A DNA stretch of 30,784 nt from a virus, in IMG/VR virus record IMGVR_UViG_3300021356_000103, positions 1 through 30,784 of that record. One strand, 5' to 3'. A program made the position numbers and the translations under genes. This document shows positions 2,030-25,438 of this stretch, one piece after another. Positions within the stretch are counted from its first letter, which is position 1. Each line of letters opens with the position of its first letter. Under the pieces are notes generated by a model that searched no databases, was not told the origin of the DNA, and saw nothing but the letters and a program-made list of their open reading frames with translations.

Positions 2030-2128
2030 TTATTGAAATAACGGATTAGTAACTTTAAATGTGTCCGCTAATTGTGAACTTGTATACGTTGAAGTAGGAC
2101 TTACGCTAGAAGCGGCCCCTAATTTCCC
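2030..2128 (-). other. Candidate -1 frameshift site and 30-aa C-terminal extension
   Basis: Just before the TAG of the 252-aa gene the minus strand reads TGG GGA AAT TAG. The heptamer G GGA AAT (2128-2122) closely resembles the lambda G/T slip site G GGA AAG. A -1 slip continues with LGAASSVSPTSTYTSSQLAD and then TFKVTNPLFQ to TAA at 2032-2030. Without this extension the 104 bases to the next gene would be the longest gene-free gap in the window. With it the spacing falls to 15 bases, typical here. A one-base indel in the GGGG run, natural or an assembly error, would give almost the same protein and is the main alternative. Confidence 0.5.
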
Positions 2129-2877
2129 CAGCCTTTTCCAAAATTATCACTCTCTGCAGCAGCACCCATATATGCTTGAGCAACACCACCAACACCGGAT
2201 ATTGCACTTCCCCATGCAGCTGCTTGAGCTTGTCTTGACTGAGCTTCTTGAGCTTGAGCTTGAGATACAGCAGCAGATGCTCTATCTAGATCCATGTTAG
2301 TTCTAGCTTCTTGGGCTTGGTACTCAAATTGTTTACCAGCAGCTTCAGCAGCTTGTACTCTTTGTCCTTCAGATATTGCTATGCTTTGTAAGCGTTGTTG
2401 TTCTGATATTTTAGCAGCTTGTAAAGCTTGCTCTCCTTGAGCTCTTAGTTTTTCGTTTTGAGCTTCTTGTTGTTCAATATTAGCAGCAACACCTTTTTTA
2501 CTCTGTAAAGCAGCCATCGCAAGAGCGGTAGCTCCACCAGCACTAGCGCCAGTTTCTCTAATAGTATCTAATGTATTAGCTAAAGCTATATCAGCTTCTT
2601 CAGCTTGCATTTCAGCTGCTTGAGTAGCAACACCTAAATTAGCAAAAGGATTTGTCATTTGAGAAGACAAATCTTTAGCCAAACCAGCTAAACTTTCTGT
2701 ACTTTCATACGGATTAATAATTTGTTGTCTACTGTCTAAAAGCTCTTGAACCTTAGCCTCTGCTTTTCTTTTGTCGTTGGCTGCTCTACCGGCGGCTTTA
2801 TCAGCTTGGTTTGCTTGAACAGCACCGCCTATTACGCTCGTTGCTGCTCCAACTATTGCTGCTGTTACAAATCCCAT
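2119..2877 (-). CDS. Probable internal virion protein, 252 aa (T7 gp14-like in style)
   Basis: ATG start 3 bases after the GNAT-like gene. The N-terminus is hydrophobic and Gly/Ala-rich (GFVTAAIVGAATSVIGGAV, residues 2-20), suggesting a membrane-inserting helix. Residues 25-225 are a long Ala/Gln/Glu helix of coiled-coil type, followed by a second Gly/Ala-rich segment (SAISGVGGVAQAYMGAAA). This design is typical of small podoviral internal or ejection proteins that leave the capsid at infection. The assignment rests on composition and position, not on a recognised domain. The zero frame ends at TAG 2121-2119, but the -1 frame continues for 30 residues of protein-like sequence (see the separate entry), so the true C-terminus may lie at 2030. 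Confidence 0.75.
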   Translation of the reverse strand: MGFVTAAIVGAATSVIGGAVQANQADKAAGRAANDKRKAEAKVQELLDSRQQIINPYESTESLAGLAKDLSSQMTNPFANLGVATQAAEMQAEEADIALANTLDTIRETGASAGGATALAMAALQSKKGVAANIEQQEAQNEKLRAQGEQALQAAKISEQQRLQSIAISEGQRVQAAEAAGKQFEYQAQEARTNMDLDRASAAVSQAQAQEAQSRQAQAAAWGSAISGVGGVAQAYMGAAAESDNFGKGWGN

Positions 2878-2880
2878 AGT

Positions 2881-3291
2881 TTATATATTTTTTGTTAATT
2901 CGTAGGAAGGGCTTTCATCTACTCCCCAGCCCAGTTTTTTATGTGTATTTATTAAGTGTTTATTTCTACAAACACTGAACATGTATTTTTTATCTAAGTT
3001 TTTACAAACGCCCTCTGCGGCTGTTATTAAAAGCTCTAGAGCTTGTTTCCTGTCTTTTTCTCTATATTCTGGATCTGAAACAATCCACTCTAACAAAACA
3101 ACATCAGAGTTTGTAAAATAAAGAAAACCAGCCATTATCGGTTTGTTATTTTTTTCAACCATTAACCCACCAGTACCGTTGTCTGGTAAAAAGTCTTTAG
3201 GTGGATTAACCCATTTAGGCCAAGCCTCCCACCACTTACACAACGTGTCCCAATCGTTTTCGTTTAAAACACGTGTAGTTAATTTTTCCAT
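2881..3291 (-). CDS. GNAT-fold N-acetyltransferase-like protein, 136 aa
   Basis: ATG start, 10 bases after the 451-aa tail gene. The sequence follows a GNAT order: an N-terminal strand (LTTRVLNENDW), a central pair of strands (GGLMVEKNNKPIMAGFLYF), a strand with the motif-A-like segment EWIVSDPEYREKDRKQALEL, and a C-terminal helix and strand (NKHLINTHKKLGWG). GNAT enzymes move an acyl group from acyl-CoA to an amine. The usual pyrophosphate loop Q/R-x-x-G-x-G/A is not clean here: REKDRKQA lacks the glycines, so CoA binding or catalysis may be altered or lost. Similar small GNAT-like genes recur among marine-phage tail genes (from memory). Substrate unknown; modification of a virion protein is only a guess. 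Confidence 0.65.
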   Translation of the reverse strand: MEKLTTRVLNENDWDTLCKWWEAWPKWVNPPKDFLPDNGTGGLMVEKNNKPIMAGFLYFTNSDVVLLEWIVSDPEYREKDRKQALELLITAAEGVCKNLDKKYMFSVCRNKHLINTHKKLGWGVDESPSYELTKNI

Positions 3292-3301
3292 TTAATTAAA
3301 T

Positions 3302-4657
3302 TTAATATGATGATTCTACATAGTTTGTAGAAACTGCAAATAATTCTTTTTTACCACCCAAACTGTTATCTACACTCATTTGTACAGTGGCAAAGAAACC
3401 TTTTATACCTGAGTTGTCTTGACCCCAAACCACCTCGCCTGGTTGCGAAATAGTGTTGTTTATTAGATTAGCAAAGTATTTATTTTCTTTTACTTTGAAA
3501 TTGTTTTGTAATAATTGATTCTCTAAATCAACAAGTGTTGAAGCGCTGGTTTGAATATCTATAGCTTTTGTTATAGATAAAGATGTATCTGTTGACGACG
3601 CAAAAGATAACATTTCCCAATCGCTGCTACCTTCGTAATTTATTGTTTTAAAGTTTTTAACAAGTGATTGGTTACTATTAAAAATAAATGTTACCGTTGA
3701 ATCGTTTTCTACACCGTAGAAAATACCACGCTGATCTGGAAAGCTTGGGTCAAAAGTATAGTGTTGCCATATTTTACCATCGTTGGTAGAATATAACGAT
3801 GTGTTTAAACTAAATAAAAAGTCTGGTTTAAAACTAAAGAAACTCGTCCAACCGTTAACACTGTCATCAAAGTTTACGGTTTTGTATTCACCATTTTGCT
3901 GTATAGAAACTATATAGTTTTTATTATGTATATCCCAACCACCAATAATATTATCTGTCGGTTGTAGCGCGCCTAGATTGTCTCTAAAGAAATCTTGCAT
4001 ACCATATGACGATATTTCTGTTAAACCGTCCATAGAAAGCCTTAAAACAGCATTTCGTTTTCTGTCTGTAAAATACTTTCTATAACCGTAAACAGCAAAG
4101 CTCTCTGGGTTTGTACTAATGCCATAGTTACCACCGTAAGGTATTATTTGACCTATAACAAGTGTTGATGATGTAACAGCTGCGTTACCTTCTGCCGAGT
4201 AAATAGCATCTTTATCTATAAGAGCTTTACTTACTTTGTCTTCTTGTAATATAATTAAGTTAGTATCTTCAGCATAAAGTTTCTGTATAGAGCCATTAGC
4301 TGGATCAGCTGATTTAGTTATTTCCTCACCAACAGAAAACACGTTTGTTCTATTTATACCAGTTCTAGAGTTGAATATTCCAGAATATATAATAGAGTTA
4401 AACCTGTGTTGTTGTTGTGTTTCTTCTTCTACTAAATAAGCTTTAACACCAAAATCTACAGAGGTATTATTATAACCACCTCGTATGCGAGCTTCTTCAA
4501 TAAACCAATCTCTATTTGGCGTAGTCGTACTAGAAGCATATCCACCTGGTATTTTCTCAGGTGTAGTACGAGGATCAGTTGGTTGGTTTGCAACCATACT
4601 ATCTATCTTCTTTATCCAAAAAGAGTTAAAATATTTTAAATTTAATACTGCTCCCAT
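3302..4657 (-). CDS. Tail structural protein, 451 aa, probably partner of the giant tail protein
   Basis: ATG start (MGAVLNLKYFNSFWIKKID). An in-frame TAA lies just upstream, so the start cannot be moved far 5'. The protein is rich in strands and aromatic residues. It has beta-propeller-like or tail-hub-like stretches such as FNSIIYSGIFNSRTGINRTN (residues about 86-105), ALIDKDAIYSAEG, and ESFAVYGYRKYFTDRKRNAV (about residues 184-203). No enzyme motif. It starts 34 bases after the 1564-aa protein and continues the same kind of sequence, so the two probably assemble together. In related phages they could be one polypeptide. I infer a tail hub or muzzle component; the name is not certain. Confidence 0.7.
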   Translation of the reverse strand: MGAVLNLKYFNSFWIKKIDSMVANQPTDPRTTPEKIPGGYASSTTTPNRDWFIEEARIRGGYNNTSVDFGVKAYLVEEETQQQHRFNSIIYSGIFNSRTGINRTNVFSVGEEITKSADPANGSIQKLYAEDTNLIILQEDKVSKALIDKDAIYSAEGNAAVTSSTLVIGQIIPYGGNYGISTNPESFAVYGYRKYFTDRKRNAVLRLSMDGLTEISSYGMQDFFRDNLGALQPTDNIIGGWDIHNKNYIVSIQQNGEYKTVNFDDSVNGWTSFFSFKPDFLFSLNTSLYSTNDGKIWQHYTFDPSFPDQRGIFYGVENDSTVTFIFNSNQSLVKNFKTINYEGSSDWEMLSFASSTDTSLSITKAIDIQTSASTLVDLENQLLQNNFKVKENKYFANLINNTISQPGEVVWGQDNSGIKGFFATVQMSVDNSLGGKKELFAVSTNYVESSY

Positions 4658-23191: not shown

Positions 23192-23638
23192 TTATCTTTC
23201 TTTATCTTTGTTTACATTGTAAATAGCAGCTGTTAAAACTTTGCTAGTGTAATTACTGCCACTTATTATTTTATTTCGTCTTGAGCTAGTTGGAATATCT
23301 TCTTCACCTAGCATTATTCTGTACATGCGGTTTATAAGTTGTTTACACTTGAAGGAAACTTGGTATAAGTGGTACTTCTGTGTTGTTCTATTTCTTTTTC
23401 TCCAAACAACTATCCAGCCTTCTTTTAAAAGTCTATTCCAACGCCTATTGTCCCAGCTGTAAGAATAAGAACCAGTTTTAAAATCCTGCTTGCTAAAAAA
23501 CCCCATGCAGTCAAGATATATTAAAAGCTCTAAATCAGCATCGTTTAAATTGTTGTTTTTGCAAGCCCATTTGCGTATTATACGGTAATGTTTTAGCAAG
23601 TTCATTTCTTTAATATCCCTTGCATCTAGCCTTTTCAT
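23192..23638 (-). CDS. Winged-helix-like protein, 148 aa, possible regulator
   Basis: The ATG overlaps the groES stop (ATGA). The protein begins MKRLDARDIKEMNLLKHYRI and has helices with the order expected for a MarR-like wHTH: NLNDADLELLIYLDCMGFFS (helix and first part), WNRLLKEGWIVVWRKRNRTT (recognition helix and wing) and YHLYQVSFKCKQLINRMYRI (wing strand and helix). It is Lys/Arg-rich (C-terminal SSRRNKIISGSNYTSK), so DNA binding is plausible. No enzyme motif. It is translationally coupled to groES and may set late-gene timing, but this has no direct support. Confidence 0.5.
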   Translation of the reverse strand: MKRLDARDIKEMNLLKHYRIIRKWACKNNNLNDADLELLIYLDCMGFFSKQDFKTGSYSYSWDNRRWNRLLKEGWIVVWRKRNRTTQKYHLYQVSFKCKQLINRMYRIMLGEEDIPTSSRRNKIISGSNYTSKVLTAAIYNVNKDKER

Positions 23639-23895
23639 AAAACAACAACTATATCTTCTAGCTTGATAACATGATAACTATCTTTATCTATTTCTATTTT
23701 GTGACCGGCGTGTTTATCGAAAAATATCTTATCATTTTCTTTTACGCCAACTACATCACTTCCAATAGACACTACGCTAGCTTCTATATATCTAATATCG
23801 TCTCTATGAGTTTCAGCTAAAAGAAGACCACCTTTTGTTTTAGTAGTACCTTCTTTTAACTTTTTTATAATTAAGTTTCTACCTATTGCTTTCAT
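23635..23895 (-). CDS. groES: Phage GroES co-chaperonin, 86 aa
   Basis: The frame also opens at a TTG (23901), but the ATG at 23895 (MKAIGRNLIIKKLKEGTTKT) is the likely start. The mobile-loop region reads GTTKTKGGLLLAETHRD, with LLL where E. coli has the GroEL-contact Ile-Val-Leu. Then come SVVSIGSDVVGVKENDKIFF and a C-terminal YHVIKLEDIVVVL like the GroES LIMSESDILAIVE. GroES caps GroEL and encloses the client. The gene overlaps groEL by 17 bases, so the two are probably made in fixed ratio. Short by about 10 residues compared with the usual 95-100. Confidence 0.85.
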   Translation of the reverse strand: MKAIGRNLIIKKLKEGTTKTKGGLLLAETHRDDIRYIEASVVSIGSDVVGVKENDKIFFDKHAGHKIEIDKDSYHVIKLEDIVVVL

Positions 23896-25438
23896 CTCCA
23901 ACTCTTAAATTATTGATTACACAATCTGTAGACAATATTGTAGTTGCTACTGAAGCTGCATTTCTAAGTGCGCTTTTAGTAACTAGAAGAGGATCTATAA
24001 TTCCGGACTTAATCATATTTACCATATTTCCTGTAACCACGTTTAATCCTCTTCCTTTTGTTGTTGGCACTTCGTAATTTTCAATACCAGCATTGTCTAG
24101 TATAGTTTTAAACGGAGCTTCAATAGCATCTAACAAAATTTGTTCGCCAACATTTTTGGCTTTTATATTTTTAGAAGCATTCAAAAGAGCGATGCCACCA
24201 CCAGGTACAATACCTTCTTTTATAGCAGCTTTCGTAGCACAGATAGCGTCCTCAACTCTGTCTGTTTTTTCTTTAAGCTCAATTTCTGAGTTTGCTCCAA
24301 CTTTAACAACTGCAACCTTAGCAGATAAACGAGCAAGTCGTTTTTCAAGTCGTATAACTTCCGCAGGAGCTTTTTCAGTTTTAAGCTGTTCTTTAATACG
24401 ATCAATGACTTCATTTACTTCGTCTGATAATTCTTTAACTTGTATAATTGTTTCTTGATCGCTTGTAACGCTTTTAACACATTCACCAAGTTTGTCTGGT
24501 GATATTAAATCAAGATCGTCTCCTAGATCTTCATTTATAACCGTAGCACCTGTAAGCATAGCTAGATCATTTAATGTATCTTTTTTGCTAATACCATATG
24601 TAGGCGCATTGATAACGTTAACTTTTATATTGCCTTTGACTTTATTCATAGCTAGAGCAGCAATAACAGGTTGCTCCATATCAGCTATAATAAGTAAAGC
24701 TTTTTTATTTTTAATTACGTACTCCAGCACAGACTGTATTTGTCTAATATTTTCAACAGGTGAATCGATAAGTAAAACTAAAGCGTTTTCAAGTTCAGCT
24801 GTTTTATTGGCTTTGTTTGTTACAAAGTTAGAGTTTGTAAGTCCTTTGTCATATTCTATACCTTCTACAATATCAACTAGCGTTTCAGATCCAGTTGTTG
24901 GTTCCATCATAACTACACCAGTTTCACCAACAGCTCTAAAAGCGTCCCCGATTATTTTACCTAAGTAAGCATCGTTATTTGTAGAAATAGTAGCTACAGA
25001 GTCAATCATATCACCTGTAACTTTGATAGAGTTTTTATTTAGGTATTTAATTACTTTTTCAACCGCATCGTTAATACCATCTTTTAAATCTCTACTATTA
25101 TATTTTTCTTTAAGCTTGTAAGCTTCTTTTAAAATTGAGTGCGCTAGCACCGTAGCCGTTGTTGTTCCATCGCCGGCTTCTTTGACGGTTTTCCTAGCAG
25201 CTTCTTTCAAAAGCGTAGCACCCATATTTTCAACAGGATCTAACAAGATTATAGAGTCAGCAACTGTAACTCCATCTTTTGTAATAATCGGTCGTCCTGT
25301 ATTATCTTCAAGAATCACACATTTACCGCTAGCCCCGAGTGTGGAGCTAACGGCTTTTGTGAGTTTTTCTATTCCTTTAAATACCGTATTTTTAGCGTCT
25401 TCACCAAAATTCAGGTTTTTGACAATTTTGTCTGACAT
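23879..25438 (-). CDS. groEL: Phage GroEL chaperonin, 519 aa
   Basis: A group I chaperonin subunit, the ATP-driven folding cage. Equatorial ATP site: TLGASGK (33-39), TKDGV with Asp55, GDGTTTATVL with Asp90, and RVEDA with Asp397 near the C-terminal domain; IVPGGGIALL is also kept. The length is short of E. coli GroEL (548 aa), mainly by absence of the Gly-Gly-Met tail; it ends TDCVINNLRVGDESNR. In the apical domain, by-eye comparison with E. coli GroEL, residues for client and GroES contact differ: Y199 is Leu200, Y203 Asn204, L234 Gln235, V263 Ala263, V264 Met264, while F204, L237 and L259 (Ile) stay hydrophobic. It precedes groES, the opposite of the bacterial order. The leader is A/T-rich with no Shine-Dalgarno. 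Confidence 0.93.
   Translation of the reverse strand: MSDKIVKNLNFGEDAKNTVFKGIEKLTKAVSSTLGASGKCVILEDNTGRPIITKDGVTVADSIILLDPVENMGATLLKEAARKTVKEAGDGTTTATVLAHSILKEAYKLKEKYNSRDLKDGINDAVEKVIKYLNKNSIKVTGDMIDSVATISTNNDAYLGKIIGDAFRAVGETGVVMMEPTTGSETLVDIVEGIEYDKGLTNSNFVTNKANKTAELENALVLLIDSPVENIRQIQSVLEYVIKNKKALLIIADMEQPVIAALAMNKVKGNIKVNVINAPTYGISKKDTLNDLAMLTGATVINEDLGDDLDLISPDKLGECVKSVTSDQETIIQVKELSDEVNEVIDRIKEQLKTEKAPAEVIRLEKRLARLSAKVAVVKVGANSEIELKEKTDRVEDAICATKAAIKEGIVPGGGIALLNASKNIKAKNVGEQILLDAIEAPFKTILDNAGIENYEVPTTKGRGLNVVTGNMVNMIKSGIIDPLLVTKSALRNAASVATTILSTDCVINNLRVGDESNR

What the first reader, a model, noticed from the sequence alone, without database searches (positions are those of the whole stretch)
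2030..2128. Possible programmed -1 frameshift (G GGA AAT TAG) adding 30 aa to a virion protein
The heptamer is one base from the lambda tail-gene slip site GGGAAAG and sits directly before the TAG. The -1 frame then runs 30 residues of ordinary protein-like sequence (TYTSSQLADTFKVTNPLFQ), ending 15 bases before the next gene. A short and a long form of an internal virion protein would be new for this kind of gene. A homopolymer indel in GGGG gives the same picture.
Basis: partly seen in the sequence, partly recalled or inferred. Interest (0 to 1): 0.6.

Follow-up and report, generated by a model that had tools for sequence, protein, structure and literature searches.

The report
Conserved frameshift tail on phage protein
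A gene for a probable DNA-ejection protein in an uncultured crAss-like phage very likely makes two versions: at a slippery sequence before its stop codon some ribosomes slip back one base and add a 30-residue tail, and dozens of related phages keep the same arrangement.

Summary
On the minus strand, the 252-aa gene at 2119-2877 ends G GGA AAT TAG (heptamer 2122-2128). The -1 frame is open for 30 codons and stops 15 nt before the next gene. Alone this is weak: about 5% of shuffles stay open that long, and the local RNA fold is not unusual. Relatives decide it. Of 226 non-redundant homologues, 29, with cores down to about 50% identity, have an in-phase GGGAAAN or AAAAAAG heptamer 0-2 codons before the stop, plus a -1 ORF of 16-49 codons. 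GGGAAAN occurs in 18/170 of these genes against 0/596 other ORFs of the same loci. A short hairpin follows the heptamer by 3-7 nt in 23 of 29; a ten-sequence alignment shows compensatory changes in all four pairs. Tails are conserved as protein (window versus L380, an independent dataset with the same GGGAAAT TAG: 71%). An assembly indel, TAG read-through and a separate ORF are excluded or very unlikely. Most likely this is a programmed -1 frameshift giving a minor, tailed isoform of a crAss-like internal virion protein. The long protein, its ratio and the tail's partner are unproven. The mechanism is known (T7 10A/10B); the gene and phage group appear new.

The parts
2119..2877 (-). zero-frame gene: 252-aa Ala/Gln-rich helical protein with a hydrophobic N-terminus; probable internal virion (ejection/cargo-type) protein
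   Evidence: ORF; relatives; model; best BFVD match 'Internal virion protein' E 3e-5
2122..2128 (-). slippery heptamer G GGA AAT, directly before the stop
   Evidence: same heptamer class in 29/226 relatives, 0/596 control ORFs for GGGAAAN and for AAAAAAG
2119..2121 (-). zero-frame stop TAG
   Evidence: TAG used in 22/29 frameshift members vs 19/197 others
2096..2119 (-). candidate 3' stimulator: 9-bp stem with a 3-nt bulge (GGGGCCGCU UCU AGCG UAA GUCCU); not significant on its own in the window
   Evidence: -8.7 kcal/mol, z -0.5 and 0.1; family hairpin supported; window clade inconclusive
2030..2122 (-). -1 frame tail, 30 codons plus TAA: LGAASSVSPTSTYTSSQLADTFKVTNPLFQ*
   Evidence: conserved with L041, L166, L380 and L542
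353..2014 (-). next gene (553 aa), starting 15 nt after the -1 stop; function unknown
   Evidence: no Pfam/PHROG match
2881..3291 (-). upstream neighbour, 136-aa acetyltransferase-like protein (PHROG 17252; positional counterpart in MW202828 annotated as N-terminal acetyltransferase)
3302..4657 (-). crAss-like muzzle protein gene (PF25729 C-terminal domain)
   Evidence: E 5.8e-10, above curated cut-off

Best explanation
The gene uses a programmed -1 ribosomal frameshift at its last two sense codons. With tRNA-Gly on GGA in the P site and tRNA-Asn on AAU in the A site, the ribosome pauses before TAG and a downstream RNA element; both tRNAs slip back one base onto GGG and AAA, and translation continues with UUA in the -1 frame for 30 codons. 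Most ribosomes stop at TAG and make the 252-aa protein; a minority make about 282 aa with a flexible linker and polar tail. The protein is probably a membrane-interacting internal virion protein of a crAss-like podovirus (comparable in position to the cargo protein beside the muzzle gene), so the likely use is a fixed ratio of untailed and tailed subunits in the virion, the tail docking a few copies on a partner. Shown by sequence comparison: slip site, open -1 frame, hairpin in the family, protein-level conservation of the tail. Inferred: that frameshifting occurs, its efficiency, the virion location and the tail's partner.
For: 29/226 non-redundant relatives have in-phase GGGAAAG (17), AAAAAAG (5), GGGAAAT (3), GGGAAAC (2) or GGGAAAA (2) within 0-2 codons of the stop, each with a 16-49 codon -1 ORF (median 31, against 9 codons in frame 0 and 6 in +1), mostly ending 4-31 nt before the next gene. 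Control: GGGAAAN 18/170 target genes vs 0/596 other ORFs, AAAAAAG 4/170 vs 0/596 (Fisher 8e-13 for GGGAAAN, not corrected for kinship). Hairpin 3-7 nt after the heptamer in 23/29 vs 22% of upstream control sites and 12% of stops of relatives without the site. Ten-sequence alignment A2: all cells paired, 4/4 pairs with double changes, 0/500 shuffles reach the covariation score, partly through synonymous third positions. Tails conserved as protein: window vs L380 71%, L166 61%, L041 45%; pooled pN/pS 0.49 vs 0.41 for the cores. L380, from a Bacteroidetes MAG in another collection, has the identical GGGAAATTAG with a homologous tail. L141, without a slip site, carries an in-frame C-terminus ...FAVTNPLFD like the window's FKVTNPLFQ.
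Against: No protein or reporter data. In the window the slip is GGGAAAU (Asn codon in the A site), weaker in E. coli than GGGAAAG by general knowledge, and the local fold is not unusual; the window's clade shows a conserved nucleotide block but no well-supported hairpin. 197/226 relatives lack the site. Tails are short and many show little similarity between clades.
Confidence: 0.85

Rival explanations
1. Sequencing or assembly error: a lost or gained G in the GGGG run makes one continuous long ORF look frameshifted.
For: The site lies in a short homopolymer (GGGG), and read data were not available.
Against: The same break at the same kind of heptamer occurs in 29 non-redundant relatives from different samples, including L380 with the identical GGGAAATTAG from another project; identical copies recur in separate contigs (L001/L002, L039/L040).
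Confidence: 0.03
2. A real but non-programmed frameshift mutation: the tail is a relic that is no longer translated.
For: Most relatives have no tail; presence/absence changes at least 19 times on a quick tree.
Against: Tails evolve under amino-acid constraint (pooled pN/pS 0.49), the slip site is kept in separate lineages, and hairpin pairs co-vary; a relic would show none of these.
Confidence: 0.04
3. The frameshift serves mainly to carry ribosomes to the -1 stop close to the next start codon, coupling translation of the downstream gene, with the tail a by-product.
For: The -1 stop lies 15 nt before the next start in the window and within -8 to +31 nt of it in nearly all members.
Against: The tail is conserved as protein and is shared between phages whose downstream genes are not similar (L041/L542: tail 86% identical, next-gene alignment score 0.03 of maximum); most relatives without the site have a next gene directly behind the stop as well.
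Confidence: 0.07
4. Stop-codon read-through or TAG reassignment (known in some crAss-like phages) rather than frameshifting.
For: TAG is strongly favoured in members with the slip site (22/29 vs 19/197).
Against: Zero-frame read-through would add a median of only 9 codons, 5 in the window; 7 members have TAA; the conserved tail is in the -1 frame.
Confidence: 0.01

Closest known systems
Phage T7 gene 10A/10B and T3 major capsid -1 frameshift
   Same: -1 slip near the end of a virion protein gene gives a minor C-terminally extended form (review PMC5009743)
   Different: There it is the major capsid protein; here a probable internal/ejection protein of a crAss-like phage; slip site and tail unrelated
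Lambda gpG/gpGT tail assembly chaperone -1 frameshift (slip GGGAAAG)
   Same: Same heptamer class; -1 extension on a minority of the product; recurrent across phages
   Different: Lambda gpG and gpGT are absent from mature virions and act with the tape-measure protein (PMC5009743); here the gene follows the crAss muzzle gene and no tape-measure gene was identified
Listeria phages PSA/A118/A500 and Lactobacillus phage A2 structural gene frameshifts
   Same: Interchangeable C-terminal extensions reached by -1, +1 or in-frame decoding (PMC5009743)
   Different: Those extensions are on capsid or tail proteins and often Ig-like domains; here short tails behind a Gly/Ser-rich linker on a different protein
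PhicrAss001 gp45 cargo protein C1 and T7 gp14 internal virion protein
   Same: Gene close to the muzzle gene; N-terminal membrane-like segment (PMC10172136)
   Different: No detectable sequence match to solved crAss proteins; 252 aa against 90.8 kDa for gp45; the word frameshift does not occur in the PhicrAss001 structure paper

Membership tests
Programmed -1 ribosomal frameshift (tandem slippage) | X XXY YYZ heptamer in the correct phase | tested here: met
   G GGA AAT at 2122-2128; GGGAAAN or AAAAAAG in 29 of 226 relatives, window included
Programmed -1 ribosomal frameshift (tandem slippage) | Slip site and -1 reading frame conserved across divergent homologues | tested here: met
Programmed -1 ribosomal frameshift (tandem slippage) | -1 product not explained by independent initiation | tested here: met
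   no ATG/GTG/TTG in the window's -1 frame up to ten codons past the slip; none in 20 of 29 members
Programmed -1 ribosomal frameshift (tandem slippage) | 3' stimulatory RNA structure at about 5-9 nt, in the family | tested here: met
   hairpin 3-7 nt after the slip in 23/29 with compensatory changes
Programmed -1 ribosomal frameshift (tandem slippage) | 3' stimulatory structure in the window itself | tested here: inconclusive
   z about 0; clade alignment ambiguous
Programmed -1 ribosomal frameshift (tandem slippage) | Trans-frame protein observed | not testable with these tools
   needs mass spectrometry or a reporter
crAss-like virion gene block | muzzle, portal and TerL genes of crAss-related type nearby | tested here: met
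   PF25729 muzzle domain; PHROG portal 6547 and TerL 6681; TerL relatives are Flavobacterium/Cellulophaga phages. Formal Crassvirales membership not tested
crAss cargo protein C1 (gp45) | sequence or fold match to gp45 | tested here: not met
   profile search of PDB sequences finds no phage cargo protein; only a weak fold hit to a 'Cargo protein 1 compact domain' protein (E 1.2)
T7 gp14-type internal virion protein | fold match | tested here: inconclusive
   best BFVD match 'Internal virion protein' [uncultured virus] E 3e-5; named podoviral ones only E 0.25 or worse; model pLDDT 74, pTM 0.41
Lambda-type tail assembly chaperone | gene lies directly before a tape-measure gene | tested here: not met
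   neighbours are muzzle, acetyltransferase-like and a 553-aa gene without family match

The most novel reading that the evidence does not exclude
Slip site, hairpin-encoded Gly/Ser linker and tail form an exchangeable cassette that crAss-like phages repeatedly gain, lose and swap on an ejection protein, reached by several kinds of slip (GGGAAAN, AAAAAAG, possibly T TTT TAR, G GGG GAR and even +1 at GGG TAA C), so that a tailed minority of ejection subunits is a general, so far unrecognised feature of the virions of this phage group.
Probability: 0.4. Interest if true: 0.75.

Novelty: new member of a known kind. Interest (0 to 1): 0.62.

Why it matters
Annotation of these phages would miss the tail, since by standard rules the gene ends at the stop. 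If the tailed isoform exists, an ejection-type protein of a crAss-like phage is made in two forms at a set ratio, which would bear on how its internal proteins are arranged and leave the particle; not all cargo proteins of PhicrAss001 were resolved (PMC10172136). The many natural versions of the site also form a ready comparison set for how frameshift sites arise and move in DNA phages of Bacteroidota.

Tried and rejected
1) Judging the window alone: open -1 frame p about 0.05 and fold z about 0, so not decisive. 2) Annotated phages: tblastn of the window protein (E 0.01) and of L041 (E 1) found nothing; the L065 search found only phages that match its S74-like C-terminus. The nearest annotated phage, MW202828, has at that position a 302-aa protein with no slip site at its end. 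3) Intrinsic terminator as the reason for the hairpin: no T-tract follows it (mean 2 T in 8 nt), and there is no terminator-like site in the window region. 4) Known RNA families: nothing credible in Rfam. 5) Co-evolution of the tail with the core or the downstream gene: no rank correlation. 6) The tail motif was not found in other proteins of the fetched loci in a convincing context, apart from the in-frame C-terminus of L141. 7) PDB sequence and fold searches of the core gave no useful match. 8) Literature searches for frameshifting in Crassvirales or internal virion genes found no report of this case; only an open-access subset was searched and one query failed on syntax.

Full report
WHAT IS THERE. 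The window is a 30,784-base virus record whose structural genes are on the minus strand. The gene in question, 2119-2877(-), encodes 252 aa and ends ...GGC TGG GGA AAT TAG. The heptamer GGGAAAT (2122-2128) is in the phase G GGA AAT. The -1 frame continues for 30 codons, LGAASSVSPTSTYTSSQLADTFKVTNPLFQ*, and stops 15 nt before the 553-aa gene that starts at 2014. There is no ATG, GTG or TTG in that frame from the preceding stop to ten codons beyond the slip site.

WHICH PHAGE AND GENE. Upstream lie an acetyltransferase-like gene and a gene with the crAss muzzle C-terminal domain (PF25729); portal and terminase match PHROG families. The terminase is closest to MW202828 (64%) and to Flavobacterium elemo and Cellulophaga phages. 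The protein has no Pfam or PHROG match of its own. Its model is all helical (pLDDT 74, pTM 0.41) and the only good structural match in BFVD is an 'Internal virion protein' (E 3e-5). The N-terminus (FVTAAIVGAATSVIGGAV) looks membrane-active by inspection. In PhicrAss001 the gene numbered after the muzzle (gp44) is cargo protein gp45, with a predicted transmembrane helix (PMC10172136). I therefore take it as a probable ejection/cargo-type protein, but homology to gp45 was not detected.

COMPARISON WITH RELATIVES. Eight scans of IMG/VR and one of genome contigs yielded 535 loci with the gene, window included, 226 after removal of identical sequences. In 29 the zero-frame ORF ends within 0-2 codons of an in-phase GGGAAAG (17), AAAAAAG (5), GGGAAAT (3), GGGAAAC (2) or GGGAAAA (2), and the -1 frame is then open for 16-49 codons (median 31; frame 0 median 9, frame +1 median 6). 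In the first 172-member set the GGGAAAN class occurred in 18/170 target genes and in none of 596 other ORFs of the same loci; AAAAAAG in 4/170 and 0/596. The homologues are not independent, but presence/absence of the trait changes at least 19 times on a quick FastTree, so it is scattered rather than confined to one clade.

RNA ELEMENT. In 23/29 members an uninterrupted stem of 4-7 bp begins 3-7 nt after the heptamer, against 22% of upstream control sites and 12% of stops without the site. In ten sequences aligned without gaps from the heptamer, all 40 cells of a 4-bp stem pair, all four pairs show double changes, and 0/500 shuffles reach the covariation score. These ten were chosen because their stems lie at the same offset, which favours pairing; the slid and shuffled controls and the unselected count are the guard. 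The stem codes for a Gly/Ser-rich linker (for example AGSG, NTGSG), and several compensating changes are at synonymous third positions. The window's own clade (L380, L395, L051, L394, L003, L067) instead shows a conserved GGC...GTAAGNCCT block, kept even though L003/L067 read it in another phase, with only weak support for the window's predicted stem.

TAIL. Tails of related members are alike in the -1 frame: window/L380 71%, window/L166 61%, L041/L542 86%, L003/L067 84%, L036/L037 89%; pooled pN/pS is 0.49, against 0.41 for the cores (the pairs overlap, and the single pair L003/L067 shows no constraint). L041 and L542 share a tail whose last 60 nt are 97% identical, while their cores are 49% identical and their flanking genes dissimilar, which points to recombination of the tail. 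L141 has a similar end, FAVTNPLFD, in frame.

MECHANISM. The best reading is tandem -1 slippage of the tRNAs on GGA AAT to GGG AAA with TAG and an RNA element behind, giving a minority of a 282-aa product. Tandem slippage on X XXY YYZ, and minor C-terminally extended virion proteins made this way, are established (PMC5009743). The G GGA AAT version places an Asn codon in the A site; that it slips well in this host is inference. What the tail does is also inference: a docking or anchoring tail on a few subunits of a virion-internal assembly.

ALTERNATIVES. An indel error is refuted by the recurrence in independent data; TAG read-through by the frame of the conserved tail; a separate gene by the lack of start codons in 20 of 29 members, the window among them; a terminator by the absence of T-tracts. 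Coupling to the next gene could be an added effect.

NOVELTY. No report of frameshifting in this gene or in Crassvirales virion genes was found in the searchable open-access literature; this is not proof of absence. As a mechanism it is a known kind; gene, phage group and the exchangeable tails appear new.

Noticed in passing
L183, L521, L522 (ends of the homologous gene): These homologues end TTT GGG TAA C and have the +1 (not -1) frame open for 39, 21 and 21 codons up to near the next gene: a candidate +1 frameshift version.
   Followed up: partly
L051, L120, L230, L394 (ends of the homologous gene): -1 tails behind non-standard sites (T TTT TAA, T TTT TAG, G GGG GAA GAC TAG, G GGG GAG TAA); L230 has a hairpin CGCCG GGGA CGGCG directly behind the stop, and L051 and L120 have tails that begin like the window's.
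   Followed up: partly
L395 and L407, homologous gene: An in-frame TGA lies shortly before a GGGAAAGTAG slip site with a normal -1 tail; premature stop, error or recoding not resolved.
   Followed up: no
L005, L058, L065, C-terminus of the homologous gene: An S74/endosialidase-chaperone-like C-terminal domain appears fused in frame; tblastn hits of this part of L065 include proteins annotated peptidase S74, tail spike/chaperone and ejection protein.
   Followed up: partly
L041 and L542, tails: Tail DNA 97% identical over its last 60 nt although cores are 49% identical and flanking genes dissimilar: recent exchange of the tail cassette.
   Followed up: partly
29 members with the slip site: The zero-frame stop is TAG in 22/29, against 19/197 in relatives without the site.
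   Followed up: no
window 2089-2121, L380, L395, L051, L394, L003, L067: The nucleotide block GGC...GTAAGNCCT is conserved even where the reading phase differs, suggesting an RNA-level signal that is not a simple hairpin.
   Followed up: partly
window 23635-25438 (-): By inspection, GroEL-like (519 aa) and GroES-like (88 aa) genes precede the structural block; an elemo phage also has a cpn10 gene directly before its terminase gene.
   Followed up: no
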